A DNA stretch of 64,000 nucleotides from Hygrocybe punicea. Lineage: Eukaryota; Basidiomycota; Agaricomycetes; Agaricales; Hygrophoraceae. Where the stretch lies: assembly GCA_963556145.1 (NCBI GenBank), contig OY744461.1:8318891-8382890 (forward strand), written 5' to 3'. Shown piece after piece: positions 29,641 through 58,585 of this stretch; the stretch's first letter is position 1, and every line of letters begins with the position of its first letter. Both the position numbers and the translations under genes were made by a program. Below the pieces are notes generated by a model, which saw nothing but the letters and a program-made list of their open reading frames with translations, did no database searches and was not told where the DNA came from.

Positions 29641-30179
29641 TAGTGTTGCCGTAGTTCGGTTCCGAACCTAGCCGAACCCGGTTCAAACCCCAAACCGAAC
29701 CCGGGGTTCAGTCTAAGTTCAGCCAAATGCTGAACTGGACCGCGGGTTCGGTTCAGGGTTTCGAGGCTGGCCGGATTTCCTGAACGGCTCCAAACCGCGT
29801 CCAAACCGCGAACGCGGATATTTTTAAGGAATTTATTTCATTTGTTTTTCATATTTCTTTACTTACCATTTCGTGTTAAACGGTATCATGTGACCGGCCG
29901 TGACGAGGTAGCTTTCACGCGACACAGCAACATCAACACGGATTGAACACAACACAATTTGTGTTGTGTTCCTCAAGGTAAGTTTCCTTTTTTTCTTAAC
30001 TTTACTAATGTTATTTGCGACAGGAAAATCGACAACCACGGCAACGACAACCACGACGCCCAGCAGCAGCAGCAGCAATGTCGGCAGCAGCAGCAACAGC
30101 GGCAGCGGCAACGGCAACAGCAGCAACAGCAGGAGCGCAGCAGCAACAGCAGCAACGGCAACGGCAACGGCAACGGCAA

Positions 30180-30220
<41 letters not shown>

Positions 30221-30875
30221 ACGGTGGCAGCAGCAACGGCGGCAACAGCAGCAGCAGCAGCAGGAGCGCAGGAGCAACAGCAGCAACGGCGGCAGCAGCA
30301 ACGGCGGCAACAGCAGCAGCAGCAGCAGCAACGCTGGCAGCAGCAACACCGGCAGCAGCAGCAGCTGCTGCTGGTGCATCAAGCCCCAACATCACCATCA
30401 GCGGCGGCAACAACAACGGCAACCACCACCACGACGGCCAGCAGCAGCAGCAGCAACAGTGGCAGCGGCAGCGGCAACAGCAGCAGCAGCAGCAACAGTG
30501 GCAGCGGCAGCGGCAACAGCAGCAGCAGGAGTGCAGCAGCGACAGCGACGGCAGCAGCAGCAGCAGCACCAGCAGTGGGAGCGGCAGCAGCAGCAGCAAC
30601 AGCACCAGACGGCTCCCCCGTAGCCCAACTTCCTCGCGAAGCGTAGCGCCGTATCAATTGATACGTGCCTGCCATTCGCGAGGAGAACGGAGCTCAGGGG
30701 TGAGCCAACCTCGGTCTGGGGTTCAGACCGCGTCTGAACCCAGACCGAACGCGAAGAGACGGTTCAAAGCCGTTCTGGTCCAGGTTTGGCCATGCGCCAA
30801 ACCGGACCCGAAGTTCAGTTCGCGGTTCCGCCAAAAAGGCTCGGAACCGGACCGAACTGAACTTCGGCAACACTA
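29641..30875. mobile_element. hAT-like non-autonomous element A (1,235 bp)
   Basis: TIRs TAGTGTTGCCG...CGGCAACACTA with a perfect 8-bp target duplication GCGTTTAC (29633-29640, 30876-30883). The left 300 bp is nearly identical to the inverted right end of element B. Inside: a perfect hairpin (29945-29971), a 46-nt intron (29978-30023, GTAAGT, TTACTAATG branch, ACAG), a 600-bp CAG/CAN-type repeat open in all six frames, and the 52-bp dyad module (30632-30683). No transposase. It interrupts the WW-domain gene. Confidence 0.92.
30632..30683. repeat. 52-bp dyad module in element A
   Basis: Arms CCTCGCGAA / TTCGCGAGG around the core GTATCAATTGATAC; both palindromes share the same centre (30657/30658). 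Confidence 0.85.
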
Positions 30876-33267
30876 GCGTTTACTGCCACAGCTCGGTGGC
30901 ACTCGAGACCCCAACCATCCGGATCTCTCGCAAGCATCAAGACTGCCTTCTGGACCTTCTACGACATCTGCTCCTAGAGCTCGACATTCACATGATATGC
31001 CGTTTACTCCCAATGAGTTTCCAGCATTAAGAGATCGAAATGTAATGGATGTTGATACTCTCCCTGCGTCTAGAACATCGTTCGGATCAAATGACGTGCC
31101 CATTCGGGCAGGTTCTGGGATGTATGCTGATCGAGAGCACAATACCGATTTACCGAAGGGTCCCAGGGCAATGTCAAGCAAATCGTCGACAGCCATGTTG
31201 TATCCACCACCCCCAGTCTCTCCTTCTGTTTCCCATCGCCGTGCCCAATCAAGATCGTCCAGCCTACAGATTACGAGATCGATCAACACCGCACCTGGGA
31301 AATAGTGAGAGATGGGAGCAGCATCGTGATGCACAGGAAAGATTACCACGATCTGACGGCGGGACAGCGAGAGAGGATGCTCTGGCGTGGAGACCAGAAC
31401 ACCAGAGTGTAGATGACTCTTCGGGTAGGCGCGAATTACTTCCGCAAGATGTAGAAGGGAATCAGGTATGGCTTCCAACTTTTTCGGCTGTGTGACAGTC
31501 ATTGAGGCCATATGACAATCTCAACGAGAGTCATTCTTGAATTTGACCCGGCACACGGAATTTTTTCGACACTTTCCTCCCAATCCCCAGCCAAAGGCCC
31601 TTGGAACTAACAATACTCCTGTCAGAAACAGAAAAGCTCATCACACTGGAACTGGTCCCCAGTCGTCCCCGGCGTTTAGGGATAATCGGTACATTCCGCC
31701 AGGCGCCGGGAATTCGGAGCCCTTCCAGAATAGAGTACCTCGCATCGACACTCGATCCAGAGAGTCGTATGAACATTCGGTTTGTGCATCTCCTGAAACA
31801 TAATTTGTAGACGCAATTTAGGGCCAGGGGTGTATCGCCAGTATATAGCTGTCACCCTCCTGTCACCGCTTCTGGTCAACACAGAAGAGGAGGGGGTGCT
31901 GGTGTTGGTGGAGGAGGAAATGCTCACGCGGTTCTGTTTGTGTTCGGATAATCAATCCATTCACATATCTGCTTAGGGCTTCGAAGGCCGTCCCCCGACT
32001 CCCTTGAACACATACCAGACCAACCCGACACCAGCTCGTTCTCGACGAGACTCGATTCGTACCGATGTAGAACCTGTAAGTCTGCTTTGAAATTGTTTTA
32101 TGACTCATTGACGAATGTATCTAGCAGCCTTGTTTCGAACAACCTAGTCAAGAAAAAAACAGACTTGCTACATCGTTGGATTCCTAGTCAGTCTTCGCCC
32201 GGTGCTCCTGCTATTCGCCCCAGTTTTAGTGGGGAGAACGTTTATCAACCTGCATCACCTTTTCCGCCTCCTCAGGAACCACCCAGCGTATCACCAGTTT
32301 GGGATGCCTCTTTTGGAACAATGCCTCGCCCAGCAGGTCGGCAGCATGACAATACCCGCCAGCAAAATCAGTATGAAAATGCTTCCCGCCAAGCCAACAT
32401 GGATGGTGATTCCATTCACAGGCGTCAGGTTTCTCTGACAGATCGGGACAAGGAGAGAGTTGCAGACCAACGTATCAACAACGTTGTGGTTGGCCTCGAG
32501 AGTCGTCTCGGCGAGCGATTTGATGATCGATACCCCTCATTGCGCCGTGATCATGAGGGGTACGCTGAGGATGTGCCTCATCAAACTGATCATCGTGGTC
32601 GGCCTCATGCCCTCAGTGCAGGACGCCCCAGCGCAGGCTGGATGGAACAAGGGAGACCAAGGAATCCCAGTCCTATTCCCGCTTCAGATGCCTATTCTGA
32701 CCGTTTTCCTGGTGCCCAAGCCCTTATGCCGTCCCACGATGGTGTTCCCTCCCGAACTTCCAAGCCCAGCCGAGCCCGTCGGTTTGGACCCGCCACTCAA
32801 TCAAGATCAGATGCGATACATACGGAAGTAGCGGTTGACATGATGTCGGGCGGTGGCCGTGCAGTAAATCGGGGCGTAGACGAAGAGTTACCACGCTCTA
32901 GTCACGATCACGATCGTCCGACCACCCTACAACGAGGAGGTTTGTTGTTGGACCGACTGTCTCTCGACAACTCGACAACTAGTGGTTCGGTTGTGATGGC
33001 TTCAGCATCTTTGCGTGAGAGGTGCCAATCCCCTCGAAGAGAGATCGCGAAGAGATGATGAGTGGAGGCGATTTGCCTTCAATAGAAACTTTATTCGACG
33101 TTGACGACGGTGCTGATTCAGACAATCATATCATCTCGGACAGTTGTACTCTCAAATTATTCTCATTAATTTTTCATGTTTAATTTTTCATGTTTAATTC
33201 AAATCGCAAACACAAACAAACAAACACTTGTTTTACACTCGTTCCACTTTTTTTTCAATGCGTCGTG

Positions 33268-34902
33268 ATGAACAACCTCTTGTTGCGTTATCGTACCTCT
33301 AGAGATGCAGCACGTCCAGCACCAGTGTCTCATGGACTACCTGACCCTCCAAGGACCACCAGATTAGCTGGTCCTGCACATATACCACCGGCTTCAGATG
33401 TTTTTGAATCAAGCTTTCAAACACCGGCTCCAAGGCAAACTAGTAGATCTGGGATGCAATCTTCTCTTCTGTCGCCTATACCTGCAGCAATATTTTCCCC
33501 TGGCCCAATTAGACGCCGTGGCGCTGAGGCTGACCTTGGTGATGAAAGAGAGCGGAAGCGGTTCAAGGTACATGCTAGGAAACAATGTCTAAGATACAAC
33601 CTAGAGGAAAACTCTCTCGACGCATTTTCTCAAGTGTGTATCATTGTTTTACTCTACCACTATACCTGATTATTCTCTACCAAAGCACTCAGATTCGAAA
33701 CTCATGCTCATCGATATCATGGCCTACATGATGGGTCATCAGCAGAATGAGAAAGATGAAAAGACAAAGGACTTGCTAAAGTCCCTGGAATTCCGGGTAT
33801 CATTTATTTGTCGCGGATATTGGCTAGTGGTGCCGACCTTCTGTCACAGAAATATCTGCAAGATCGGCTTCTCGCTTGTCTTCTCTCCCCCAACTTAACA
33901 GCATATGTTACTGATCTTGCGGAGCATATTCTTGTAAGCATGATCACATACTTTCGTTCCAAGACTTCTTATTCGTATCTATGGTAGGATTTGATCCGCG
34001 ATGACCCTGGCATCTTCAAAGTACCCTCTGAAGCTCTCGAAGACCCTGAACTAGCTCAAATACTGTTGACACTCGTGAAAGAACTACTGACTAATTTACG
34101 CAGCTCGATCAAGCAAAAGGTATGCCTCATTGTGCATCACATTCGTTTTAACTGTGCTAATGCTAAAATGAGATTGCATTCTCTACTGCCACCAAACTTA
34201 AAAATGGAAAAGACAAGAGGCCGCAGCATATTGGCGCGTTATCAAAAGCACTGACCCCACCTGGAATGGAAGTAACGGTGCTCCACTGGGCACGTATATC
34301 ATATTTGGTATGCTTCATGAACTCATCGCTCTACTTTTCATCATGTTTGATTCTAGAGAGGCTGTTATGTCCACTTCGAAACCAAGTTTGGCAGTGGCAG
34401 GCCCACACCCAATGGTCCTAGCTCCACATCTAGTCACCGCCCTGGTAATGTCGACGAAGACAGAAGTGATGGTGGCCAAGGAGGTGATTTTGATTTCAGC
34501 ACTCTTGATGACCACGATTTCGGTGGAATTGCCCATGCGACAAACGGTGGCTCAGGAGAAGGCCCTGAAGCAGATGGAAATCAAGATTGGGTTCCTGTGG
34601 ACGAACGAAGCTATGGTCCGGGGAAATTTTGGACGTTTGTCGATGACTTATTACAAGAAGCCCGTCTGAAAATTCAGGCAAGTGCGCCAACGGTGGAAGA
34701 TGAGAATATTGAGTGGACAGCGTGAGTTTCTTTATTTGCGTGTCTCGTTACGAGTATTAACCCTTGTTATTAATGAAAGGATTTTTACGCTAGCTTTCCA
34801 AGACGACCTCAAGAAGTATCCTGGACACAAGCAGGGGAAACAAACTACCACAACTCCGTCGGTTGTCTGGCAACAAAAGATTGAAAAGGCTCTGATGTGG
34901 TG
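33268..34902 (+). CDS. Unknown multi-exon Agaricomycete protein
   Basis: Exon 1 33268-33633, intron 33634-33685, then further exons to a stop at about 34902. Typical small introns end in TTCTGTCACAG (33850), ATGGTAG (33990) and similar sites. The N-terminus is Ser/Pro/Arg-rich (PGPIRRRGAEADLGDERERK) and continues into an alpha-helical region reading HSDSKLMLIDIMAYMMGHQQ, then KYLQDRLLACLLSPNLTAYV and DLIRDDPGIFKVPSEALEDP. An acidic Gly/Asp-rich stretch follows (DFDFSTLDDHDFGG), and the end is LKKYPGHKQ. It follows the WW-domain pseudogene by about 70-200 bp on the same strand, so the two may once have been one locus or a transposon-borne pair. No catalytic motif seen. I do not recognise a function. 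The start could be upstream. Confidence 0.6.
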
Positions 34903-35435
34903 ATTCTGCACGACTATGTTGCTGTCGTGATATCATGTTGTCGCTCTCTTTCATACAGTCGTTTTTACATTCATTTAATGGCCTATTGTATATTCCAGTA
35001 TTTTGCAATACAGCGCTTTTCGTATGTTATAGCCAAGCCAGGGTTTACTGCCTATCAATCTGTGGTGAAGCCTCAGGCCTCAGGGACCATCAGTCAAAGG
35101 TTTGTCGAGGGTTCGCAGGGACTGTTTGAACGTGCCTGCTAAACTAGGCTTGAAATGGTGCTGAAATTTTGTATTAAAAATTGGTCTAGCAGAACCCTCT
35201 CGGATCCATCACTTCGGGTTTGAGCAACCTCCACGTCAAAGGCTTCCAGAACGCCTTCCAGAATCACTAAGACAGTAAACGCCATAAAAGGTTCAGATCC
35301 AGCCACTTCCGACGATTACCAAAGGGTGGGAACTTCGAACCCTGAGCTAGCCCTGAGCTGTGCTCGTGGTGTACCATGAAGTAGTGGGGGTGGCCACCCC
35401 CTGCTGGTTGTTCCATTTCGTTGACTTGCCCACTC

Positions 35436-35805
35436 TAGTGTTGCCACAGCTATAGCCGATGTTTTTTGAAAAATTGCCATTTTAGGCTAGTAAAATTAGG
35501 CAAAATTATGAAAATATTTGAGGAGATGGGTGAAGCCAAAAGCTGAGGGGTCACTTAAGGGTGCTAAGGATTTGGGGCTCAATTCTCAGGGTTCTTCAGG
35601 GATAGCTGTTGGATGGTAGCTGACTAGGCTCAACAGCTATGGTTGAATAACTCTGAAGATTGGGCACCAAATTCTTAGCACCCTTAAGTGACCCCCCAGC
35701 TTTTGGCTTTGCCCATCTCCTCAAATATTTTCATAATTTTGCCTAATTTTACTAGCCTAAAATGGCAATTTTTAAAAAAACCTCAGCTATAGCCGTGGCA
35801 ACCCT
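35436..35805. mobile_element. hAT-like foldback MITE (370 bp)
   Basis: TAGTGTTGCCACAGCTATAG at the left and its inverse (CTATAGCCGTGGCAACCCTA) at the right. The 8-bp target duplication GCCCACTC is perfect (35428-35435, 35806-35813). The two halves are nearly full-length inverted copies, so the element folds into one hairpin. Confidence 0.92.
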
Positions 35806-35813
35806 AGCCCACT

Positions 35814-37095
35814 CCGTTCGTTGGTGTGTGCATGCTGATATGCAATATGTAGCTATAAGAAGGGAATCCTACAACTACTAAGGTGAAAAGGTGCAAGGAA
35901 GCTTCGGAAAGCCTACACTAGTATAGGAAAGGAAAGAGAAGGAATAGAAGTGTATGAGAAACTCAATAGAAGTGCTGCAATCAAAATCAAAGTGGTGTGA
36001 TCAAATCAAAGAGTTGCAATAAAATCAAAAGTCGCAGTCAGATCAAAGGGTCAGACAGTGAGAGAACATGATAAAATGTAAAGAGAATGGAACTAGGATG
36101 AAGGGGAAGAAGGGGGAATGATGGTCTGTCTTGATTCTCTGGGGGGTTCTCTGTCTAGTGGCTCATACAGGCAGGTAAATAAGCTGTAAGGACAAAGAAA
36201 GAGGGATGAAAGGATAATACTAAAAGGAGATATGTGAGATAAAGGGCATATAGAAGAAAGGATAGGTAGAGAGAATGATAAATGAATATAGAAAACAAAG
36301 AGAACAAAGGAAATACTTCGAAGTGCGATAACTAAATATCTCCGAAGTCGCAGAAGATCACAATAGTCGCAATGTAATCGGAAGGTCAAAGAGAGGTAAG
36401 TCACATCAAATCGCAAGGAATCACAAAATATATACAATTGGAGCTCAGGATTGCTGAGTGCATATCAGCACATCTTGGGGCTTGTTCAACTTGTTGGTAC
36501 ATCTGATGTGGCATTGATTGTCACCATTGTGGTTGTGGCTGTCATGGTAGCAATTGTCATTGTCATTGTCATTGTCATTGTTGTGGTGGTGGTGGCCATA
36601 GACTTGCAACTTGATTGTTAGTGTCAAATAAAATAAAATAAAATAAAATAAAAATTTATGTGGGCATAAGGGAGTACCACGCATACCAGGGCTGCACCAC
36701 GCCTGGTCTTGCTCACCATCATCATCATTGCGTTGGCATCATCCTATGGTCAAAGGTCAGTATGGGTCAGTACCAGTCATGAAAATGCTAAGTCAAACTT
36801 ACTGAAAATGGCAAATGTGATGATATTTGGCACTCCATTTTGCCAAACTTTGCCAAATGGTCTGTGTGCGATCAAAACATATAAGTTGTGCATGCATTTA
36901 CTTGATCAGGGCATATCATTCACTTCAATTTCGTTAATACTGATTTACTTGTTTACAGATAATATGTCATACATTTCATAAGTCGTTAATAAATATAGTT
37001 GTTGTAAGGTTATGATAAAATCAATTAAATATATTTGTAATCTCTTAATTATTAATAATTGATATTGTCTTTGAATTTGCCTTGACACTCTGTCG
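35814..37095. other. CpG-poor repeat-derived sequence, no gene
   Basis: AT/GA-rich DNA with (ATTGTC)n at 36550-36580 and (AAAAT)n at 36630-36650. 36450-36720 is an old, CpG-decayed relative of the hairpin-intron part of element F (shared GGGAGTACC hairpin arm and the AAAATAAAA intron). No coding region supported. Confidence 0.5.
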
Positions 37096-37101
37096 CACAA
37101 A

Positions 37102-37405
37102 AAGGGCCACCTTTTACAAGGAGCAAAAGGGGCCAAAGGTCCCAAGAGGTAGCACCTTTTCCAAGAAAGTGACCTGGCTTAAAAAAGGTCAAACTCTTGG
37201 AAAAAGAGGTCAAAAGGAGGAAAAAAGGGAAGGGAAAAGAATCAAAAGCTCTTCTTTTCCCTTCCCTTTTTTCCCTCCTTTTTCCAAGAGTTTGACCTTT
37301 TCTAAGCCAGGTCACTTTCTTGGAAAAGGTGCTACCTCTTGGAAAAAATGCTACCTCTTGGAAAAGGTGGACCTCTTGGGACCTTTTTCACCTTGTAAAA
37401 GGTGC
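37102..37405. repeat. Foldback repeat (~150-bp arms)
   Basis: The left arm (for example CCAAGAAAGTGACCTGGC and AAGGTCAAACTCTTGG) is repeated inverted to the right of about 37250. Parts of the right arm are duplicated (CTACCTCTTGGAAAA three times). A diverged relative spans 46900-47400. Confidence 0.75.
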
Positions 37406-42068: not shown

Positions 42069-42266
42069 TGGGAAGTTGGTGTCAAATAGCAGAATTCTTA
42101 TGAAAATCGCAATCAAAATGTGACTGGATATTTTGTATTAGGAAGTGCCAACTTAGTTGGCAAAAACCTTGCTTGCTGGCTAGACAATGTGTACAAGTGA
42201 CATATATACAAAATTTGACCTGAGAGCACCACCATTCCTAGATAGTCTGGCATAAGCTCATGACAC

Positions 42267-42495
42267 TAGTGTTGGGGAAGTTCGGTTTGGTCCGGTTTGG
42301 GGCCTTTTTGCCCAAACCGGAAACCGAATGGTCCGGTTTTCCACCCAAAGTCCCCAAACCAGACCGAAACCGATGCAAACGGTTTGCATCGGTTTCGGTC
42401 TGGTTTGGGGACTTTGGGTGGAAAACCGGACCATTCGGTTTCCAGTTTGGGCAAAAAGGCCCCAAACCGGACCAAACCGAACTTCCCCAACACTA
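42267..42495. mobile_element. hAT-like foldback element D (229 bp)
   Basis: TAGTGTTGGGGAAGTTCGG at the left and its inverse at the right, palindromic over nearly its whole length. Flanks do not match (CATGACAC / GTTGCAAG), so the site was rearranged after insertion. Confidence 0.75.
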
Positions 42496-42670
42496 GTTGC
42501 AAGGTCAGAATGGTGCAGGGGGACTGGCCACTAACCAAAACCGAACCGATGCAAACGGTTTGCATCGGTTTCGGTCCGGTTTGGAGATTTTGGGTGGAAA
42601 CCGGACCATTCGGTTTCCGGTTTGGGCAAAAAGGCCCCAAACCAGACCAAACCGAACTTCCCCAACACTA
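42496..42670. mobile_element. Half element E abutting LINE ORF1
   Basis: Starts with 35 bp related to the flank of the 52-bp module (CAGAATGGTGCAGGGG), then a right-end half of a TAGTGTTGGGG element ending CCCCAACACTA at 42670. It replaces the 5' end of the LINE ORF1. Confidence 0.6.
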
Positions 42671-44675: not shown

Positions 44676-44694
44676 CCAGGACACCCCAATCCCA

Positions 44695-44746
44695 CCTCGC
44701 AAAGATGCCAGCCACTTCAATTGACGTGCGTGGCTCTCTCACAAGG
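44695..44746. repeat. 52-bp dyad module at the LINE 3' break
   Basis: CCTCGCAAA ... CTCACAAGG with core TTCAATTGAC. Left flank CACCCCAATCCCACCTCGC matches the inverted flank of the copy at 50507. Confidence 0.75.
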
Positions 44747-45300: not shown

Positions 45301-45413
45301 GTTTTAGTAATTCATGGCACTCGCGGCTTTTTTTTTTTCATGTCCAAAGTTTGGACTTGTTGAATTCTCATAGTTCATTGTATCATAACCTGTACATGTA
45401 CTGACCCATCAGC

Positions 45414-45803: not shown

Positions 45804-48500
45804 AAAATAAAGAAAAACACGGTATATGTACTTTTAGCCCTTGAAAAAATGAACAATTTTCTCTCTACAATCTTTTTCATAGGAGCTCCTTTGATGCCAT
45901 AATTTGACAATGTCATTTTGGGTGTCAAAAAGTACTGGTTTACCTTTTGTTTCATCTACAAGTCACCAAATACTAAATATTGTCCAAATGTAATTATAGA
46001 AGTAGATAGCCCTTAAGAAATAGTACAACTTTCCCTCTATAACCATGTTAATCCATGCAGTATTTCATGAGATACAAGGTAGAGCACAGAAAATTTCACT
46101 AAGTCCATATCATTTCTTTTATTGCGACTTTCAGAAAAGCTGTCGCAGCTTGAAATGTGCATCAAATTCAGCAAAATCACCATTTTTTTAATAACTCATG
46201 GAATACTGTATGGATTGTTAAGGTGTAACAGGGGGCAATCATCTATTTTACAAGGGCTAGGCAGCCCCAGGCTTAGATTCTGAATATTACATGTATTACC
46301 AAATATCCAAACAATTCACCTGTTTTCAGTCACCCTTCTGTGGGAGACAAATAAGTCAGCAACCAGACCTCAGATTGGCAAGTATGTAGAGGCAAAATCC
46401 ATCTATGGTTCTGGGGCTAGGCAGCCCCACCTGTCATTCAAGAACTCATGAACATGTGAACAATCTATGCAAGACCTATTAGTCTCATATAATTTGCATT
46501 ATTTTGGGTGTTCATAACTTCATGTAAAATTACATGTGTGTAACATTAAGTATGGGGCTGCCTAGCCCCAGAACCATAGGTAGGATTTTGCCTCTACATA
46601 CTTGCCAATCTGAGGTCTGGTTGCTGACTTATTTGTCTCCCACAGAAGGGTGACTGAAAACAGGTGAATTGTTTGGATATTTGGTAATACATGTAATATT
46701 CAGAATCTAAGCCTGGGGCTGCCTAGCCCTTGTAAAATAGATGATTGCCCCCTGTTACACCTTAACAATCCATACAGTATTCCATGAGTTATTAAAAAAA
46801 TGGTGATTGTGCTGAATTTGATGCACATTTCAAGCCGCGACAGCTTTTCTGAAAGTCGCAATAATTAAAATTTTCAAAAAGTGCCAAGATCATTCAAAAC
46901 AACCTGTAAAAAAAGGCTAACAAACCACAAAAGGTATGGAAAAGCTTTCAAGAGATTCTTCTTTTCCAAAGACAAAACAACTTTTTCAAGAAATGACCCA
47001 GCTTAAAAAAGCTCTTTGTCTTGGGACAAGAGGTATCATTTTTTCCAAGTAATTTACTTTTGAAAAAGATGGGAAAAGTAGAAAAAAAGATGAAAAAGCA
47101 TAAAAGATGAAAAGTGATCTAAGGTCATAAGGTCAACAGTAGTAAGACAAGTAAAATGATTAATTTTAAAGGGTCAACAAGTAAGCAAAGTGCTAAAGGA
47201 GTCAAGTTTGAAAAGGTGGGAAAAAGTCAAAAAGGGTGAAAAGGAGTGCAAGGGATATTATGTAGTAAATATTTCCAAGTGACTCAAAGTGCCATAAGGT
47301 AGCAGAAGTTGTTAAAAAAGATGAAAAAAACCTCAGAAAAATGTTCAAGAGGTTTCAAAAAAGGTCAAGAGCCTCCAAGGTGCAAAAAAAGGGCTTGTAA
47401 TTCTCCTGATGGCCTACCACCCATTTTGCTACCTTGCAAAGGTGGTGCCATGTCAATTTGATGTGGTTGACACAGCGTGCATGGTGTAAGGGTGGTGTCA
47501 TTGTTGTTGTTGTTGTCCCTGTTGTCCCATTGCCATTATTGTCCTGGTGGTTTTTAAATGGTGGGCATTGTGGTCCTCGCTGGCCTGGTCCTCCTTGACC
47601 TTGTCACCCTCATTGTTATCATGTCATTTCATAGTCCTCCCTGTCTCCATTGTTGGTGTCATTGTCATCACCCCCACTGTCCCTGTCCTCATTGTCACCC
47701 TTGGCATCCCTGTGCTCAGCATTGTCACCCTTGCTGTCCATGTCACTGTCACTGGCACTGTCTGGGTTGCTGTTGTGGTTGAACTCATTTGAGTTATATA
47801 TGATTATCTAAGCAAACATGGTTAGTTTAGTGTTTAATTACAAAAGAAACTCACCTTAGGGCAAATAGCCCTGTTGTAGTTGCCAACTTGGAATCCATGG
47901 TGTGGTTGTGGTTGCCAAATTTGGCAATCATACCTGCACCCATGTCACCTGTGACCTAAAAACCATGGGTGAACCTGTACCTGTGGTCAACCATACACAC
48001 ACCTCTTGTGGTAGTGAAGTAAAGGAATCAGTTTTAATGCTGGTGATAAAATCATATAGAAATTGTGATCAGTAGGCTTATGCTTCTGTTTTGATTGCAT
48101 AGTTGTTGAGAAATTGAGAACTCATCCTGGATTACAGCTGTTTGTGTAAATGATGTCACTTTTTGAAATTTTTTGAATCAATTGAATAATATGGACTTAG
48201 AGATAATTTCTGTGCTCTATCTTGTATCTCATGAAATACTGCATGGATTGACATGGTTACAGAGGGAAAGTTGTACTATTTTCTAAGGGCTATCAGCTCC
48301 TGTAATTACATTTGGACTATATTTAGTGTATGATGAGTGGTGGATGAAATAAAGAGGTAAAGCAGTATTTTTGACACCCAATATGATATTTTAAAATTAT
48401 GGCATCAAAAGAGCTCCTATGAACAAGATTTTAGGGAGAAAATTGTTCAGTTTTTCAAGGTCTATCAGCTCATATACCTTATTTTTCTTCATTTTTGTCC
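45797..48500. mobile_element. Large inverted-repeat element (2.7 kb)
   Basis: 45797-46121 (continuing at 46864-46890) is the inverse of about 48150-48500; blocks such as GGGAAAGTTGTACTATTT and AATTATGGCATCAAA match inverted. The interior (46900-48150) holds decayed repeats related to the 37.1-kb foldback and T/G-rich (TTGTTG) sequence, and no intact gene. It landed in the Tc1-type transposase fragment and was itself hit by the 740-bp TA element. Confidence 0.75.
46122..46861. mobile_element. 740-bp foldback element flanked by TA
   Basis: Near-perfect inverted arms of about 300 bp (46122-46423 and 46550-46861) with only a few mismatches, starting TTGCGACTTTCAGAAAAGC, around a 126-bp loop. TA on both sides fits Tc1/mariner target choice. 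It sits inside the left arm of the 2.7-kb element. Confidence 0.85.
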
Positions 48501-48775: not shown

Positions 48776-48826
48776 CCTCGTGACACCGGACATGTGTCAA
48801 TTGACACATGCCGTGTGAGCACAAGG
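48776..48826. repeat. 52-bp dyad module (51 bp)
   Basis: CCTCGTGAC ... GCACAAGG around the core GTGTCAATTGACAC. Lies beside a GGGTA-rich block (48620-48760). Confidence 0.7.
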
Positions 48827-49157
48827 TGGAATGGGTGCGGGCCTGGTGCAGCATAGTTGGTGGGTGGGCACAAAGCCAGGTGATGCGTTGATACCCACTC
48901 ATATGCGCTGACCACCGAATCGACAAATCGGACAGATTCATACTATCCTTCGAAAACAAGTCCGACATCTTGTGACTTCGCGATGGCTTGTGACAACTAG
49001 TACGACTTCTCGATCGTATTGCGATCATCTCCGACGACATCGCGGACCAAGATAGAGAAACCCCCAAATCAGATCGAGCCCCAGACTAGTGTTGGGGAAG
49101 TTTGGTTTGGTCCGGTTTGGGGCCTTTTTGCCCAAACCGGAAACCGAAACCAACGTG

Positions 49158-50044
49158 ATGAGTTTCCCCAGATGATAAAATGGCTTTCGCGTCAAGAGAA
49201 GATGTTTACTTTCCAAAATTACATTTCCTGGAGAGAAAACGAACATATTGCTGACAATCCACCATCCAAGTCACTTTCATGCAATGTGGCTGGAAAAGCA
49301 ATCTCACTTCCTAAATATCCGACTCAGCCTCGACGTTTAATTTCTGATATCGAAAAACAACATTCAGCTCCTGGACTTTCTACTGCTCTCAAGGACTATC
49401 TAAATCATCTCGCACCCCACCCAGCACCTTCTCAGATCACTGCATTGCATACCCTACCATTCCAGAGGCTTGACGTCTACCATATGTTCAAATTTCATCC
49501 TCCCAGTCTTGAAGACAGTGAGGAAGAATGTGACGTCCTCAAAGCTGCTCCTGCAATGAAGAACAGGCCTAGTCGATTTGACACTGCTGTCATCCTGCAC
49601 ACAGATGATGCAGAATCCACCGGCCTTGAAGGTCTGCCCCCATTTCTACCACATTGACTTCTGTTGACCACGAAAATGCTAGGAACAAGGATAGGACGTC
49701 TCCGAGTCATTTTCACACTTCCCTCATCATTAGATTATGGCCTTGGACCATCACCATCATTTTGGCCCCGGATGCCTTTGGCGTATATTGAATGGTACAC
49801 GAGGACGAAGCCTGCTGCAGAACAAAACCACAACATGTACTCTATCAAGAGGTCTTACCGTACTGATGGAAGTCCTGCTGGTTCTATCATTCCATTGACC
49901 AGCATACATCAAAGTTGCATGTTAATGCCTACTTTTGGACGGTGCGTAGAAAGAACATGGACCGCTCATGATGTTCTAGATAAATGTTCAACATTCTTTG
50001 TTAATAACTGGCATAACATGTATGCATACAAGACTATATGGTAG
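49158..50044 (+). pseudogene. C-terminal fragment of a Plavaka-like transposase
   Basis: Two consecutive frames. 49158-49657 has KMFTFQNYISWRENEHIADN and a DAESTGLEGLP end. 49664-50044 has RLRVIFTLPS, MPLAYIEWYT, MYSIKRSYRTDG, IIPLTSIHQSCMLMPTFGR and TWTAHDVLDKCSTFFVNNW. I associate this C-terminal layout with the large Plavaka-type proteins of Agaricomycetes (recollection, not searched). The N-terminal and catalytic part is missing and the frame is broken between the two pieces. It lies inside hAT-like element F. Confidence 0.6.
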
Positions 50045-50506
50045 CAATAGTATTAGAATGTTGTAATTTCCAGCAGGCGGTGAGGCAACAGTGGGGCCAC
50101 TGGCATTGCAAACAGCTAAGGTAGATAAATACATTGTGTGGCATAATATACTCCATAAGACGTTAAACAATCCTAATCAGTATGCCTCCAAGCACCTGGC
50201 ATATGTTTATTTAGTATTTCTAGGTCAAGTGTGATTCTGAACTTCTAAGATGCTCTGAGAAGCTCTAAGATGCTCTGTGGAGCTCTGTGACACTCCCTGG
50301 TGACCCTGGGAAATTTGGGATTTCCCAGGACCCCATGGGACCAGAAGTGTTTTTCCTGATGTACAGCTAAGCTTTGGTCCGGTTTTCCACCCAAAGTCTC
50401 CAAACCAGACCAAAACCGATGCAAACCATTTGCATCGGTTCGGTTTCGGTCCAAACGCGGTCTGAACCGCGGACCGCTAGTGCTCAGTGCCCCTGCACCA
50501 TTCTGA

Positions 50507-50558
50507 CCTCGCAACAGTGCTGCGCACGTCAATTGACGTGGCCAGCCTGTTTGCGAGG
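50507..50558. repeat. 52-bp dyad module in element F
   Basis: CCTCGCAAC ... TTTGCGAGG around ACGTCAATTGACGT, centre at 50532/50533 for both. Confidence 0.85.
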
Positions 50559-51300
50559 TGAGATTGGGGTGCTGGGGTGCTGGCACACCCTGCGCCGGCA
50601 TTGAGCCGCACGCGGGCTTCTCCATGGGTGTCCCGATGCGTCACACACGTTGTACATGCAATGTGGGTTGACCGCATTGGCCGTTTTCGGTGGACGCGTG
50701 ATGGTGGTGGTGGTGGTGCCCCGTGCGTCATACGCGTTGTGCACGCGACGACGGCTGGGCCGCTTTGGTTGTTTTCGGCGGACGCGTGGTGGTGGTGGCA
50801 TAGGAGCCTCTTCGCGAGGGTGTCCGGATGCGTCATACGCATTGTACACGACGATGGCCGGGTTGACCCCGCGTTGGCCTTCCTCGGTGGTGTTAGTGTT
50901 CCGTGGTGGTGGTGGTACGGTGCCGCGTTCTATAATGGACAAATAAATCAGTGAAAAAATGAATAAAGGTACATACCACGAAGGAGCGGGGTGGATGCAC
51001 CACCCCTGCTGCTCTTCCACCTTGTTGACTCCACCCCATTCACGTACGTTTGGCACGCATTTTGAACGTGTTTGGCATGGCGCTGGGGGTGGGCCGTGGG
51101 CGTTGCTGTTGGCGCGTCCGGTGTGGCGTTGACGGTGGTTGTAACCGTCACTGTTGTCGTTGCCATTGTCGTGGTGGTGGTGGTGGTGGTGGCCGTGGTG
51201 GTGCATCAACCTGTAATTTGTAAATGCGTTAGTTAAGTTCGAATAAATAAAATTAAAAAACATACGCGGGCAGCAGGGAGTACCCCGCCGCCTGTTTTGT
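50559..51300 (-). CDS. Spliced low-complexity ORF of element F
   Basis: On the minus strand, exon (to 51266), intron 51265-51211 (GTATGT, CTTAACTAACG branch, ACAG), exon 51210-50978, intron 50977-50930 (GTATGT...TATAG), exon from 50929. The translation is His/Gly/Asn-rich then Pro/Arg/Thr repeats (PPPPRVRRKQPKRPSRRRVH). Start and end are uncertain. Whether it is translated is unknown; the splice signals are good. Confidence 0.45.
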
Positions 51301-52149
51301 CAACCTCGGGTGCTCCATCGTCTTCGTTTGGCATATATCGGGGGTGTTGTTGGTGGGGTTGGTGACTTTGGGTGACTTTCGAAGTCAGCCATGTAGCCGA
51401 CTTTGGACTGTCAGTTTGCGGTTCAAACTGAGTTTGAAACTGTTTCAGCCTGCGGCCAAATCTCCAAACCGGAGACTGAACGGTTCAGTCTCAGCCGAAA
51501 TTTCCCAAACCGGAACCGAAACCGGCAGTTTCGGTTCGGTCTAAACCGGGTTTGGGTCGGTCTGAGACCGAACTTCCCCAACACTACCCCAGACCCTCGC
51601 ATAATAGTTCGCCTTTCATAACAGTAATACCCTGTTTCATCTTAGATACACTAACTCGTTTAGAGTACCTATTCCCTTTCTTCCATCCAACTCCTTTGTT
51701 CTTCCTTTGTTACAGGATCATCCTCATCTTCCTTTCACCACCTCTTTTGGCTGCGTTTACATGTGATTGATACTCAGTCCTTTCTTTCGACCCCTATTAG
51801 ACTAGGTTTCTTTCTTTACACAACTTTCTCACTTTGTCTCCGATCTCCGACCGTCTTCGTATAAAATAGCTGTTAGATTACATGTAGAAACAGTGAACTA
51901 GAGAGCATCATTCCTGTCTCCTCACTCAGTTATACCTTTCGAACTCCAATATGACTTTACTTTCCTCACATTCGACCATCCCCGACCGTAGTTCTTTACA
52001 TCGATCTTCTTTAGTCGCCGTGACTTTAATCGCCAAAGTCGCACTATCGATTGCGATCGTCGTGAGACTTGTAGAAGTTATTCCACTTCACTTACTCGCA
52101 ATCTGACCAGTTGAAGAGTGTTGTTGTTAGTGCACAGCACCTCGATTAG

Positions 52150-53367
52150 CGTATCATTTGGAGCCCACCGCGAGCGGGTGATTTCTCATTTTGAAAAATA
52201 GCTTCTACACCTTCTCCCTTCTCTTCGCCATTAACATCCCTCTCATCCTCAGATTCTTTACCACCATCACCGATCACTGCAGGACCCCTACCAACGCCTG
52301 CGACCCACCAATATCATCTCCAATCTAGGCCCTGAGACCTTTCACCTATAGCTACCCAAAGACCACCAAGCAGTCCATCGTCGCCCCCATCCCCCTCATT
52401 GTTGACCGAAGATTCATCATCGACGATGTAGATGCGGGTTCTTGGTGGCTTCGGAACTATATAAAAGAAATAAATAAAGATCCTAACCAGAGGGTGTCAG
52501 CGTAGAAGTGACTGGATAATTCAGTGTCGGGAATAGTAGTAAAAGAAAGTGAAAGTGAAATAAAAGTAAAGCCGCCGCATAAACGGGACTAATTACGACG
52601 AATCCGGCGATGAACGGAGTGAAAATGGATAAATGACGATGAACCCGATGGTGAACGGACTGAAAACGAATGAACCCGACGATGCCGACGATGTCGGGTA
52701 CGACGGGTCGGGTCGGGTCGGGTCGGAAACGATGAATGAATATACGGGAACAATGAGGAAGACAACGAAGTAAACTATAAAAAGGCTAAGGAACTACGTG
52801 GACGAGCATTTGAAGGGATTTAAACGATTCTGACTATGAGGGAAACGGGGACTAAGGGTATCTTATTGTACGGTCGTCGGGGACCGTTTTTATAGTACAG
52901 GAAACAGTAATCTACTTTCGGACGTGTATACTTCGGCCGATGGTAAGCTACAAAGAAAGGTTGGAATGGGGATGTGGAAAGGGGGGTTGCAAAGCAACGA
53001 AGACAGGAAATGGAGGGGAAAACGAATATGCAAGGAAAAGATCTAGAAAGTCCTACATATCTCCGAAAGGACGATGGGATGCATAAATAAAGTAAATCCG
53101 AAGTCGGGGATTGAGTCCGAAGAGATCCATCTCCTGGAATTGGAACTCCGAGGCGTTTGAGGCTGCCGGATTTAGTCTGAGAGCGGCTGTGACGAAGCGG
53201 CATACGTCGGGTTATGTCGGTCACATCGGGTCACGTCACGTCACGTCACGTCGGGTTGCGTCGGGTTACGTCGGGTTCGAATGCGAGTTGGATAGAGGCA
53301 TCGGGTTCGTCCGGATTCGTGATATATCGATGATACGGACTCAGAGGGACGTCGACCCTCTCCAACG
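52150..53367. other. Leader of the gypsy-type element, no gene
   Basis: C/T-rich then GA-rich DNA with short tandem repeats GGGTC (52700-52725) and CGTCA (53230-53270). Contains no supported ORF. Confidence 0.5.
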
Positions 53368-54233
53368 ATGTCTACCAATCATCGTACACTCGATCAAGAA
53401 CTTCGAACAGCTCTCCGACGTGTCGATTCCTTAGACGACATCAATTCCGATTGCAGTCTCTCACGTTTCTTTACTCATCGCCCACGAAATTGTTCCGTTT
53501 CTACCTCATCAACAACTACATCTGACTTATCCGAAACAGCATCTACGATGGTCACACAACCTCGTACAACTCCTATAATGCTCGCTCGGGGTCATGCAAC
53601 CACTCTGACATTTTCCCCCTCTCAACCGAGAGAACTTCAGCGATACTTCAACAATCTCGAACATTTATTCACCAGCTGCATGATCGCCGATGACGAAGAA
53701 AAGAAGAAATTCGCAAGACATTACCTTGACATCGACTTGTCCGACCTATGGGGAGAACTTGGAGAAAGTGGTGTAGGTCACTCATACGATGACTTCACGA
53801 AGGCAGTCATAAAGCTTTACCCGGGTGCCGAAGATGAAAGAAAGTGGTTGATCGCTGATATGGACAAACTTATCGGCGAGCAGTTGCGACTTGGCATCCG
53901 TGACTTGACAGAGCTCGGCACGTATTTCCAAAATTTCTACAACATCATGTCTTTCCTTCGCAAGAAAGGTCACATCTCTGACACCAAGATTAGTTGCGCT
54001 TTCATCAGAGGCTTTCAGGAGCCGTTATGGCAGTCTATCAAGCATCGTTTAGAGCTCAAATATCCCAATCACTTGCCCGACAATCCTTACCCCCTCCTCA
54101 ATATACATGCCGCTGCGCAGTACATCCTTCATGGAAGTTCACCCACATTATATATTGTCGTGACCGCGTCGCTGACTATCGAGAGTACAAGTGTGCAACC
54201 GACAGTAAAAACTGAGGACTTCGCACAGATTAT
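53368..54233 (+). pseudogene. Ty3/gypsy-type Gag, 5' part
   Basis: Starts MSTNHRTLDQELRTALRRVD. A retrotransposon Gag core follows: LTFSPSQPRELQRYFNNLEH, KKKFARHYLDIDLSDLWGEL, DDFTKAVIKLYPGAEDERKW and LGTYFQNFYNIMSFLRKKGH. Open until the hAT-like element K enters at 54234. The first eight bases after K join in frame to the remainder of gag at 55094, so K entered an intact gag. Confidence 0.82.
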
Positions 54234-55085
54234 TAGGGATGACGACGGGTTTGGGTCAACCTGCGGTATTACCAAAACGGGTTGCACGGGTATGGGTAGG
54301 GTGTTCGGTTTCGTCACCTGTGACCATACCGTGACCCGTACCCGCGGTTTGGCGGTGTGTCACGGGTTCATCACACAACCACCACAACCACCTCGACGGC
54401 TACAACCAAGGGCGAGCAAGCACGCGGCGACCAGACGACCGACCGGAACAGTCAAAGGAAGGAGCAGGGAAGCGGCCAGGGGGTGGTGCTCCCACTTCCT
54501 GGCCTAGGTAAGTCTCAATTTCTGATCAAGTAATGAACTGTAGCTAACTACGCTATGACAACAACAACAACAGCATGGGGCAACAGCATGCAATGACAAT
54601 GACGCATCGCCCTCTCGTCCACCTCACGGACATGCAACAACAACAACGCGTCACCCTCTTGTCCACCTCGCGGACATGCAACAACAACAACGCGTGCCCC
54701 TCTCGTCCACCTCGTGGACAAGCAACAACAACGACGCACCCCCTCTCGTCCACCTCGTGGACACGCAACAACAACAACAATGTGTCCCCCGGCCCGGGCC
54801 TTTGTCCACCTCACAGACACGCAACAACAACGCGTCCCCCTTCGTCCACCTTGCGGACACGCAACAGCGATGACGGCGACGCGTCCCCCTCTCGTCCCTC
54901 TTGTCCACCTCACAGACGCGCTACAATGTGTCCGACGGCACATGCCCCCCTCGTTCCCCATGTTGATCACCTCGCGGACAAGCACGTCGCGTCAATTGAC
55001 ACCGGCGCTGCATCTGCGAGGTTGCAGAGCGGAACGGGTGCGGTGTCAGCCGAGCCGACCCGTTCAAGACCCGTGGTCATCCCTA
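54234..55085. mobile_element. hAT-like element K (852 bp)
   Basis: TIR TAGGGATGAC...GTCATCCCTA with perfect 8-bp target duplication CAGATTAT (54226-54233, 55086-55093). Interior: GGGTA-rich end, a hairpin GGCCAGG/CCTGGCC (54474-54504), a donor GTAAGT three bases later (54508), a short intron with AGCTAACTACG branch ending in AACAACAG, then seven or so 43-bp minisatellite units (54614-54945; GTCCACCTCGCGGACA plus CAA repeats), and the 52-bp dyad module (54970-55021). Same plan as elements A and B, although the TIR differs. Confidence 0.9.
54970..55021. repeat. 52-bp dyad module in element K
   Basis: CCTCGCGGA ... CTGCGAGG with core GTCAATTGAC. Its left arm is also the CACCTCGCGGACA part of the neighbouring minisatellite unit. 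Confidence 0.78.
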
Positions 55086-55093
55086 CAGATTAT

Positions 55094-56562
55094 GGATAGG
55101 TTCACGACGACCCTCATCAAAGCGCTCATGCACCCCAACTGCCACCAACAGCACACCGTTAATGCGATTCCAGCCTGTGTGCAAGAAGGGCCCCGAACCA
55201 ATAGTGTCGACAAGAGCTGCAATTTTTGCGGTGAGTTAGGCCATTTCCTAAACAACTGCTGACATGTCAAAGAGTACATCACAGATGGAAGAGTCAGGTG
55301 AAACCACGAGGGATGACTCGTTCTTGGCACAGGAGCCTTCATACCCCGAGTGGCCGCTGGAATGAACCTTCGCGATTGCATCGACGAATGGCATCGTCGC
55401 AATCCCAACCAGTGAGCCGCCGCGCAGATTACCAGCAATGCGACAACTACCGGTCAACTTATGTACGAAATAAATGTCCCTCATCTGGCCGTGATGTTCC
55501 ATTTGACATCTGAAGATCAAATTGCCATCCTTGAGCGAGAGCTTTTCGCACTGAGGAATAAAGAGGTCTTCGATGGTGTCCAAATTCCGAGATGCAAGAG
55601 GCCCGTCCCAACCCACGAAGAATGCCCGCCAGTCGCACCCCCGACCGAATGATCACCTCCAGTCGCAGAACCCGAAGTACAGGCTCCTGCACCAGCGAAA
55701 GAAACCGAGTCTCCGGTTCATCCATTCGCCAAAGCCCGCGAACCCGTGTATCTCCCTCCGCATGAGAGAAACTTCATGGCCCTGCCGACCAAGGTAGCAA
55801 AAGACAAAGAGGCCACGTATCGCACAAAGGCACCGGTCTAGGATTCGAAAATTGCGGATGAGGTTTACGATTGATGGTTAAAGACACCTTGTGTATTGCT
55901 CATGAAGGAACTTTTAGCACTTTCTCCAGAGGTTAGGCAAAAGACGCGCGAAGAGATTATGCCAAAACGAGTGACGACATCAAACACTCGTGATACGAAT
56001 GTCACAGCTATAAATGAAGATGACCTGTTACCGTTTTGCAATGATTTTCTTTTTGATGACCTCGATCCTCGATCCAAACCTATCATCATAAGCAACCCGT
56101 ACAAAACATATCTCAACACTCTTCGTCCAGGAGATACGGATGAATTTTGCGCAGTCACGAAAGAGTGGCATGCACTTCGCTCGATCTACATGACCGTCAA
56201 CAACCAGGAAAAAGTTGAGAGCATTGTCAACCCGGGATCGCAGATTATCGCAATGTCGGAAACTATCTGCCACGATCTTGGTCTAGCATATGACCCAATG
56301 ATAAGGCTCAACATGCAGTCCACAAATGGCGAGATCAACCAGTGGTTGGGACTCTCGAGGAATGTACTTTGTCGCATCGGAAACATAACACTGTATCTTC
56401 AGATGCATGTCATCTGGTCTCCCACCTATGACATTCTGCTCGGATGACCCTTCGACGTCTTAACCGAGAGCATCGTCAAGAACTACGCGAACAAGGACCA
56501 AATGATTATGATATGCGACCCGAACTCTCGACAGTGCGCAACGATTCCCACTGTCACGAGAG
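55094..56562 (+). pseudogene. Ty3/gypsy-type Gag end and protease
   Basis: 55094-55260 ends Gag with a CCHC knuckle CNFCGELGHFLNNC, then a TGA at 55261. After stop-broken sequence, 55896-56562 encodes a retropepsin-like region: SIVNPGSQIIAMSETICHDL, LGLSRNVLCRIGNI and PTYDILLG then TGA. The usual catalytic D-P-G-S is N-P-G-S here, another sign of decay. The frame continues after the stop (PFDVLTESIVKNY) until element J enters at 56563. No reverse transcriptase or integrase is found in the window. Confidence 0.78.
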
Positions 56563-57398
56563 TAGTGTTGCCGCAACTACAACTAGCAGTCAACTTGAAG
56601 TCGTAGTCATAGCCGATATTAGCCGAGTCGACCTCTGACTCGACTACAACTATCCAATCAACTCGACTTCAACTATGCCAATCTGGCAAGCCGTAGTTGA
56701 GCTGACTTAGCCAACTGTAGTTGGTACGGTAATAATTATATAATTTTATTTATTTATTTATGACCTGTAAATTTAAATGGCTCGAGAGCAGATTTGAAAG
56801 AGTTTGGGGGCGGCTTATATACCTTTCTCACCGTGCACGGACCATGTGACCTTGTTTGGTCAGCTGGAACAAACACAATCACGCAACGATTATGCGTAGC
56901 ACCCAAGGTAAGTGTAATTCGGGTTCGGGTGTTTATTCTACTAACTACTTAAACACCTCTAGGTTTTTTTCCCACACCCTCGCGCCAAATGAACGCGAAC
57001 ACGGCAACAGCAACAAGCAGATGGGACGCAGCCGAGAACGGGGACAACGCAGGCCGACCATGACAGCAAGAACGAGGATGACGGGAATGATGACGATGGG
57101 GTAAACGAAGACAAGAACGACGACGAACGCAACGATGGCGAGAATGGGAAGACGACGACAGAGCGGGAACGGCAACTACAACAACGGGAAGACAACAACG
57201 GGGGAACGGGACAACCAGGACAATGGAGACTGGGACAAGAAGGACAACAGCAACGGGGACGATGATGATGGCAATGACGAGGACAGTGAGCACGGGAACG
57301 GGGACGGGGGCAACGGACGACAGAAATGAGGCGGATGCCCATGGGACGTCCCCAGTGCCATCCAACCTCGCGAAAACATAGAGCGCGTCAATTGACGT

Positions 57399-57759
57399 TA
57401 GTGTTGCCGAAGTTCAGTTCGGTCCGGTTCCGACCCTTTTTGGTGGAACCGCGAACTGAACTTCGGGTCCGGTTTGGCGCTGGGCCAAACCTGGACCCAG
57501 ATGGCATCGAACCGTCTGTCTGCATTCGGTCCGGGGTGGGCTCACCCCATGAGCTCTGTTCTCCTCGCAAATGGCAGGCATGTATCAATTGATACGGCGC
57601 TGCACTTCGCGAGGTAGTTGGGCTGCGGGGGAGCCGTCCGGCGCTGCTGCTGCTGCTGCTGCTGCCGTTGCCGTTGCCACTGTCACTGTTGCTGCCGCTG
57701 CCGTGGCTGTTGCTGCTGCAACTGCTGCTGCTGCTGCTGCTGCTGCTGCCGCCGCCATT

Positions 57760-57793
<34 letters not shown>

Positions 57794-57813
57794 CTGCTGC
57801 TGCTGCTGCCACC

Positions 57814-57848
<35 letters not shown>

Positions 57849-58585
57849 CGTTGCTGTTGCTGCCGGCGCTGCTGCTGCTGTTGCTGTTGCCGTTGCCACC
57901 GCTGGTGGTGGTGGTGGTGGTGGTGGTGATGTTGCGGCTGTCCCGTGGGTGGTGTTGCTGCCACGGCTGCTGCTGCCGGCGTTGCTGCTGTTGCCGGTGC
58001 TGCTGCTGCTGCTGGCCGTTGCCATCGTCATTGTTGCCGTTGCCGTTGCCATCGTCGTTGTTGACGTTGACGTTGACGTTGCCGTTGCCACCGCTGGTGG
58101 TGGTGGTGGTGTTGCGGCTGTCCCGCATCCGTTGGCATTGCGTTGGCGTTGTGATCCATTTTGTGCCGCGGTGGTGTGCTCGCGATATGCTCGCGGTCAA
58201 GTTTCCTGGAACAGATAATATTAGTAAAGTTAAGATAAATGTTGAGACTTACCTGTGTCAATGAACGCGACACAATGTCGCGTTCATTGGCCTTGCGTTG
58301 TTGTTGTTGGTGAAGAAACCTCCCTGTAATGGTCACATGATACCGTTTAACACGAAAAAGTAAGTAAAGAAATACGAAAAACAAATGAAATAAATACCTT
58401 AAAAATATCCGCGTTCACGGTTTGGACGCGGTTTGGAGCCGTTCAGGAAATCCGGCCAGCCTCGAAACCCTGAACCGAACCTGCGGTCCGGTTCAGCATT
58501 TGGCTGAACTTAGACTGAACCCCGGGTTCGGTTCGGGGTTTGAACCGGGTTCGGCTAGGTTTGGAACCGAACTACGGCAACACTA
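57399..58585. mobile_element. hAT-like element B (1,187 bp), nested in J
   Basis: TIR TAGTGTTGCCG...CGGCAACACTA, perfect target duplication ATTGACGT (57391-57398, 58586-58593). Same family as element A in opposite orientation (about 95% or more over the first 300 bp by eye). Minus-strand intron 58252-58206 and a perfect 14-bp hairpin (58259-58289) ending six bases before its donor. GCT/GCC repeat (57640-58120) and a dyad module (57563-57614). The insertion point lies inside another dyad module. Confidence 0.92.
57563..57614. repeat. 52-bp dyad module in element B
   Basis: CCTCGCAAA ... TTCGCGAGG around GTATCAATTGATAC, centred at 57588/57589. Confidence 0.85.

What the first reader, a model, noticed from the sequence alone, without database searches (positions are those of the whole stretch)
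29945..58289. Hairpins of unrelated sequence just upstream of the 5' splice site in hAT-like elements
Seen directly. Element A: perfect 13-bp hairpin 29945-29971, then 6 nt, then GTAAGT. Element B (minus strand): perfect 14-bp hairpin 58259-58289, then exactly 6 nt, then GTAAGT. A and B are nearly identical on both sides of this segment, yet the hairpin sequences share nothing. Element K: GGCCAGG/CCTGGCC 3 nt before GTAAGT (54508). Element F: a 10-pair hairpin (two G-U pairs) 3 nt before GTATGT (51265), and a 7-bp hairpin before its second donor (50977). A relic at 18806 and element J show weaker versions. Pairing kept without sequence conservation implies selection on an RNA (or DNA) stem next to a splice site, for example splicing control, small-RNA precursor formation, or a cassette that is replaced. 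I know of no described element class with this layout.
Basis: partly seen in the sequence, partly recalled or inferred. Interest (0 to 1): 0.88.

Follow-up and report, generated by a model that had tools for sequence, protein, structure and literature searches.

The report
Transposon RNA hairpins beside splice sites
In a fungal genome, short DNA transposons and related repeats carry a small hairpin with a near-constant tip at an almost fixed distance before a predicted splice site, which points to an undescribed RNA signal linked to splicing.

Summary
But "A and B share nothing" is wrong: their core arms align (GAACACAACA / GAACGCGACA), differ by CpG transitions, and loops are flipped. K and F's second hairpin led further: they belong to a family with a conserved cap (GTGG-TGCNC-CCAC) and family-specific lower arms that pair with each other, ending 2-7 nt before a predicted 5' splice site. 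The exact 14-nt cap occurs 773 times in the 92-Mb genome; 602 matches have GTANGT within 4-34 nt, 97 of 100 listed rows at 11-16 nt; reversed control 0. Of eight places picked by a different motif, 6 had cap and donor. Downstream lies a 52-nt palindrome (CCTCGCGA...TCAATTGA...TCGCGAGG, 592 exact places). Best reading: a transposon-borne transcription unit whose exonic hairpin is positioned from the 5' splice site, over the spliceosome-exit / exon-junction-complex zone. Function is inferred; there were no RNA data. Template switching at the DNA level has visibly edited the A/B hairpins and is the main rival. Family G has the donor without an adjacent hairpin.

The parts
29641..30875 (+). Element A: hAT-type ends, TIR TAGTGTTGCCG, 8-bp target duplication GCGTTTAC; no Pfam match in its long frame
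29945..29971 (+). A 5' hairpin, 13-bp arms, 1-nt loop, ends 6 nt before the donor
29978..30023 (+). A predicted intron GTAAGT..CTTAACTTTACTAAT..CAG (not shown to be spliced)
30632..30683 (+). A 3' palindrome CCTCGCGA..TCAATTGA..TCGCGAGG
57399..58585 (-). Element B, same TIR family as A, TSD ACGTCAAT; inserted inside another copy of the 3' palindrome
58259..58289 (-). B 5' hairpin, 14-bp arms, 3-nt loop, ends 6 nt before the donor
58206..58252 (-). B predicted intron
57563..57614 (-). B 3' palindrome
54234..55085 (+). Element K: hAT-type ends TAGGGATGAC, TSD CAGATTAT
54474..54504 (+). K 5' hairpin of the cap family (GTGG-TGCTC-CCAC), 13 pairs incl. two G-U, ends 3 nt before the donor
54508..54573 (+). 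K predicted intron
   Evidence: sequence; bounds by reading donor, CTAAC and first following CAG
54970..55021 (+). K 3' palindrome
49087..51586 (-). Element F: TIR TAGTGTTGGGGAAGTT, TSD GTCTGGGG; this copy is longer than the 1.1-1.3-kb copies read
51269..51292 (-). F first hairpin (cap GGGG-TACT-CCC, a different type), 3 nt before the donor at 51265
51211..51265 (-). F predicted intron 1
50984..51014 (-). F second hairpin, cap family (GTGG-TGCAT-CCAC), before the donor at 50976
50507..50558 (-). F 3' palindrome
63223..64000 (-). Element C (runs off the window), same right end as A/B, palindromes at 63376-63427 and 63616-63668

Best explanation
Several families of short transposons in this fungus (hAT-type where their ends could be found) carry a transcription unit: a 5' exon ending in a hairpin, a predicted 5' splice site and short intron, a low-complexity exon, and a 52-nt palindrome. 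In the main hairpin family the tip (GTGG-TGCNC-CCAC) is conserved and its distance to the donor nearly constant; the lower stem differs between families but mostly still pairs. Shown: the hairpin family, its link to the donor, its spacing, arm pairing, and the order hairpin - donor - palindrome. Inferred: it acts in RNA. It sits about -3 to -40 with the loop about 15-23 nt before the junction, where the 5' exon leaves the spliceosome and the exon-junction complex (EJC) is laid down. I propose that it must be melted to splice, or keeps the EJC off the junction, so that the element controls splicing efficiency or the fate of the spliced RNA. Template switching in DNA replication supplies repaired and flipped stems.
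For: Exact cap: 773 places; with GTANGT at 4-34 nt: 602 matches, reversed control 0; with GTGAGT: 11. Of 100 caps listed on C1, 80 have the donor; gap 11-16 nt in 97 of 100 listed rows though 4-34 was allowed; in viral contigs the same pattern has 13 hits with scattered gaps, 2 of 13 at 11-16 nt. Seven loci chosen by the 3' palindrome alone: 6 of 7 have cap hairpin and donor; with an eighth 6 of 8. Own arms pair better than swapped arms, 1 of 20,000. Loop centre 14.5-23.5 nt before the donor in the 18 hairpins I tabulated. Palindrome lies near an exact cap in 11 of 50 listed (0.9 expected), downstream of the donor in 11 of 11. Introns have donor, branch site and acceptor, with no AG between branch site and acceptor in the six I checked by eye (A, B, F1, K, L121, L123), although intron sequences differ. 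No conserved protein frame between F and its relatives L062 and L011. No Rfam match.
Against: No transcript, splicing or small-RNA data. Family G (17 of 100 rows): in the 8 rows whose printed part reaches the donor there is no adjacent hairpin (7-bp stem about 30 nt upstream); the other 9 are cut before the donor. L125 has a weak hairpin without the cap, L128 none, and one F copy, L098, gives no match to the cap model. In a fixed register 72.8% of cells pair (4 of 500 shuffles as high), but pairs changed on both sides do not beat shuffles (200 of 500) and sliding by -1 scores higher on covariation. For L121, L123 and L126 own arms are not better than swapped ones. Sense-strand folding advantage above 2.5 kcal/mol in 5 of 18 5' hairpins against 1 of 18 the other way: only a hint of RNA-level selection. 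hAT elements move as DNA, so a need for spliced RNA is unexplained. The EJC is assumed to exist in this fungus. 5 of the 80 rows printed with letters end in GTAGGT, a poor donor.
Confidence: 0.5

Rival explanations
1. Neutral DNA palindromes made and kept by template switching during replication (fold-back copying). Perfect stems, flipped loops and apparently compensatory changes are mutational; families spread whatever hairpin the master copy had.
For: Loop flips with intact stems: A loop T vs A (L002, L025, L026), B loop TTG vs CAA (L034, which is B, vs L011); inverted extension TTG-T-CAA in L037; these match signatures described in PMC8794818 (passages read). Elements hold other palindromes. 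A/B arm changes are mostly CpG transitions.
Against: Does not predict a conserved cap, nor cap-to-donor gap 11-16 nt in 97 of 100 rows, nor 6 of 7 blind hits.
Confidence: 0.22
2. Inheritance without present function: all cap-type elements descend from one cassette, and cap, spacing and order are shared by descent.
For: Fixed order hairpin - donor - palindrome and shared cap suggest common ancestry of the cassette.
Against: Lower arms and introns look unrelated between the families read while cap, spacing and arm pairing remain; no full family alignment was made.
Confidence: 0.13
3. DNA-level role: hairpin and palindrome are protein-binding or cruciform sites used in transposition or silencing.
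For: The 3' palindrome shows no sense-strand advantage (better in sense by more than 2.5 kcal/mol in 1 of 13, in antisense in 5 of 13) and B is inserted inside one. 592 exact places.
Against: For the 5' hairpin, a DNA role does not explain the tie to a splice donor. Two relatives with transposase domains and A/B-like TIRs (L069, L070) show neither the CATGTGACC anchor nor the A/B branch-site motif.
Confidence: 0.1
4. Small-RNA precursor or a Helitron-type 3' terminal hairpin.
For: Layout recalls the non-conserved hairpin upstream of Helitron CTRR ends (recalled).
Against: A, B, F, K have hAT ends with 8-bp target duplications; stems of 5-16 nt per arm are short for a Dicer substrate (recalled).
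Confidence: 0.03

Closest known systems
oskar SOLE (spliced oskar localization element), Drosophila
   Same: RNA stem-loop at an exon junction whose structure matters and which works with the neighbouring EJC (PMC10484445, passages read, abstract among them)
   Different: SOLE is formed across the junction by splicing in one host gene; here the hairpin lies wholly in the 5' exon, in repeats with hundreds of copies
Exonic hairpins at 5' splice sites (tau exon 10, SMN2 exon 7; recalled, not read)
   Same: stem next to a 5' splice site that affects splicing
   Different: those occlude the donor itself in single genes; here the donor is left free and cap and spacing are repeated across families
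Non-autonomous hAT elements / MITEs
   Same: 8-bp target duplication, TAG..CTA ends, no transposase found in A, B, F or K, high copy number
   Different: carry a predicted intron, donor-linked hairpin and second palindrome
Template-switch RNA hairpins (PMC8794818, passages read)
   Same: perfect stems, loop inversion, stem repair
   Different: does not account for conserved cap and spacing to a donor
SCANR, RNAi triggered by poorly spliced transposon introns in a basidiomycete yeast (PMC5851062, passages read)
   Same: links transposon intron splicing to genome defence, a possible reason for transposons to tune splicing
   Different: no hairpin described in the passages read

Membership tests
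hAT superfamily (A, B, F, K) | 8-bp target site duplication | tested here: met
   A GCGTTTAC, B ACGTCAAT, F GTCTGGGG, K CAGATTAT (flanks printed)
hAT superfamily (A, B, F, K) | short TIRs of type YARNG | tested here: met
   TAGTGTTGCCG, TAGTGTTGGGG, TAGGGATGAC; the consensus itself is recalled
hAT superfamily (A, B) | transposase with PF05699 in full-length relatives with the same TIR | tested here: met
   L062/L069 and L068/L070 carry PF05699 matches beside TAGTGTTGCCGAAGTTCGGTTCGG, 1 mismatch in 24 to the A and B right end
hAT superfamily (cap-family carriers L121-L127) | 8-bp TSD plus TIRs around the cassette | tested here: inconclusive
   strict ends found in 1 of 7 stretches, L124; a weaker candidate for L122; ends may lie outside the stretches
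Helitron | hairpin followed by CTRR terminus, no TIR or TSD | tested here: not met
   TIRs and TSDs present in A, B, F, K and hairpins internal
Known structured RNA family | match to an Rfam 15 model at gathering score | tested here: not met
   0 matches in the window and in six loci
Spliceosomal intron | donor, branch site and acceptor in order | tested here: met
   49 of 50 A/B copies keep donor and branch
Spliceosomal intron | removed from RNA in vivo | not testable with these tools
   no transcript data for this genome
Splicing- or EJC-controlling RNA element | stem disruption and repair changes splicing or EJC placement | not testable with these tools
   needs a reporter

The most novel reading that the evidence does not exclude
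A new class of transposon-borne RNA device: a hairpin with a fixed tip and freely re-encoded stem, held at a set distance before a 5' splice site in hundreds of transposon copies, by which the element controls its own splicing or EJC loading, for example to escape splicing-coupled RNA silencing, and which together with a downstream palindrome forms a module passed between transposon families with different ends.
Probability: 0.3. Interest if true: 0.9.

Novelty: new variant of a known kind. Interest (0 to 1): 0.72.

Why it matters
If it works in RNA, it would be an undescribed structured element in DNA transposons, a kind of sequence that screens for conserved RNAs tend to skip (PMC8216456 says, in a passage read, that well-annotated query genomes help to avoid screening transposable elements). 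It would make the open question of whether transposons tune their own splicing to evade splicing-coupled silencing testable with one reporter. It also gives a natural data set on how stems are rewritten by template switching.

Tried and rejected
Rejected: A and B hairpins as unrelated sequences (they align). Rejected: Helitron ends; a coding explanation for the F exon (frame not kept in L062 and L011; no Pfam match for the A and F frames). Weakened: A/B covariation as proof of selection (CpG transitions). Led nowhere: two full-length relatives with transposase domains, which lack the A/B motif; sense/antisense energy test (only a hint); fixed-register covariation; the mirrored control pattern (donor upstream of cap), never answered.

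Literature searches (listings seen); none of the rows listed showed this layout by title or abstract start, but the library is open-licence PMC only and lists were capped. Passages were read in four papers. One search was rejected for its wording.
Full report
What was checked. The window lies in a 92.2-Mb genome of 42 contigs. I take it for a fungus: the window holds Myosin_head, Chitin_synth_2 and WSC matches (reading the first two as a fungal myosin-chitin synthase is recall). The hairpins of A, B, K and F exist at the given places with the given spacing to GTAAGT or GTATGT. The relic at 18806 is weak (rank 10 of 56); J had no coordinates and was not checked.

A and B are one hairpin. Anchor TTAAACGGTATCATGTGACC has 623 matches with at most 2 mismatches. 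I read 50 exact-anchor copies: the 30 loci cut out, which were the first 30 listed, all on C1 and including A and B, and 20 of the places listed on C2 and C3. 49 of 50 keep donor and branch site; 40 of 50 keep perfect arms of at least 10 bp; 46 fold at -12 kcal/mol or better (one search was a first count with a narrower pattern and found the donor in 34). A is GAACACAACACAA-T-TTGTGTTGTGTTC; B is CAATGAACGCGACA-TTG-TGTCGCGTTCATTG; L014, L015, L090, L114 and L115 lie between. The core arm differences are CpG to TpG or CpA on both arms (by reading), and 10 of 11 arm changes inside B-like copies are CpG transitions. So this 'compensation' can arise by methyl-CpG decay. Outer pairs (CAAT/ATTG in B, GTT/AAC in L115) differ without CpG. 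Loops are flipped between copies with stems intact (T/A in A; TTG/CAA in B), a template-switch signature (PMC8794818, passages read). L024 lost the hairpin and kept the donor.

A second structure. The elements share a 52-nt palindrome near the 3' end, CCTCGCGA-N-TCAATTGA-N-TCGCGAGG. The strict pattern has 592 places and none in the reversed control (being palindromic, each place is found on both strands). Middle arms differ between families and pair better than swapped ones (31 of 20,000 permutations as good, 17 sequences chosen by me from the listing). It folds with z from -3.3 to -7.0 in the six copies folded, but shows no advantage of the sense strand.

The blind test. I picked seven places by hand, all on C1, with different middle arms, and fetched about 2.2 kb around each. 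Six of seven (L121, L122, L123, L124, L126, L127) have a hairpin ending just before a donor, and these hairpins share their tip with K and F's second hairpin: GTGG-TGCNC-CCAC, with variants in L124 and L126. L125 has only a weak hairpin without the cap. An eighth place, L128, shows none in the 1.1 kb held. Two more carriers (L005, L018) and two F2 relatives (L011, L062) turned up in stretches already held. A covariance model from 12 of these sequences gives 2 matches below 1e-7 in the window (K and F2) and 20 below 1e-3 in 275 kb of held loci (87 loci); most of these, K and F2 included, are families it was built from.

The genome-wide test. The exact cap GGTGGTGCNCCCAC occurs 773 times, 0 in reversed control. 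GTANGT follows at 4-34 nt in 602 matches, 0 in control (a few caps count twice: 98 distinct caps in the 100 rows listed); GTGAGT in 11. Of 100 caps listed on C1, 80 are followed by GTANGT, 20 are not. The gap is 11-16 nt in 97 of 100 rows, 12 nt in 54. Of the 80 rows printed with letters 5 end in GTAGGT; for one of them (C1:3961187) GTGAGT follows further on. The same pattern in viral contigs gave 13 hits with scattered gaps (2 of 13 at 11-16). Several different right arms are seen. Since F2, L005, L018, L122, L124, L126 and L127 depart from the exact cap, 773 is a lower bound for the family. The mirrored control (donor upstream of the cap) did not complete.

Pairing of the stems. With 11 families and a standard cap, own arms fold at -241.2 kcal/mol in sum against a mean of -191.0 for permuted arms; 1 of 20,000 permutations was as good. 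L121, L123 and L126 do not contribute. In a fixed register, 72.8% of cells pair (4 of 500 shuffles as high), but pairs changed on both sides do not beat shuffles and a slide of -1 has the higher covariation score, perhaps because some stems carry a bulge.

Order. Of 50 palindromes listed on C1, 11 lie within 800 nt of one of the 78 exact caps listed there below 7.013 Mb (0.9 expected) and all 11 are on the donor side of the cap (two share one cap, and four belong to the L121 and L123 families read before).

Mechanism. The loop centre lies 14.5-23.5 nt before the donor in the 18 hairpins tabulated. Established knowledge (recalled) puts the 5' exon channel of the spliceosome at about the last 15 exon nucleotides and EJC deposition at about -20 to -24. 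A stem there must be opened for splicing or would hinder EJC loading. oskar SOLE is a precedent for a stem-loop at a junction working with an EJC (PMC10484445, passages); in a basidiomycete yeast poorly spliced transposon RNAs feed RNAi (PMC5851062, passages). This is inference; nothing here shows transcription.

Limits. One genome, no RNA data, partial loci, families picked by hand from capped lists that start on C1, hAT ends shown for A, B, F, K and L124 but not for the other cap carriers. Family G is a counter-example where its donor is visible (8 of 17 rows).

Noticed in passing
30632-30683, 50507-50558, 54970-55021, 57563-57614, 63376-63427, 44695-44746, 48776-48826: 52-nt palindrome CCTCGCGA..TCAATTGA..TCGCGAGG with pairing but variable middle arms; 592 exact places in the genome.
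   Followed up: partly
57366-57398 and 58585-58640: Element B is inserted in the centre of such a palindrome (target duplication ACGTCAAT within it); a possible target preference.
   Followed up: no
23728-26468: C- and A-rich 696-codon open frame (24105-26195) between two 158-bp direct repeats at 99% identity: looks like a small LTR-type non-autonomous element.
   Followed up: no
42265-42497: Near-perfect inverted repeat (116-nt arms, 1 nt apart) made of F-type TIR sequence.
   Followed up: no
46112-46871 and 35435-35807: Large inverted repeats (289-nt arms 98%, 177-nt arms 90%).
   Followed up: no
L123: 868-908 (+) and 2013-2053 (-): Two copies of the cap hairpin with donor in opposite orientation in one 2.2-kb stretch.
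   Followed up: no
L113: Another GTGACC-GTAAGT family with stem ACCTGCAGG/CCTGCAGGT ending about 18 nt before the donor.
   Followed up: partly
L069, L070: Longer elements (about 3.3 kb) with A/B-like TIRs and hAT transposase domain, without the A/B hairpin-intron motif.
   Followed up: partly
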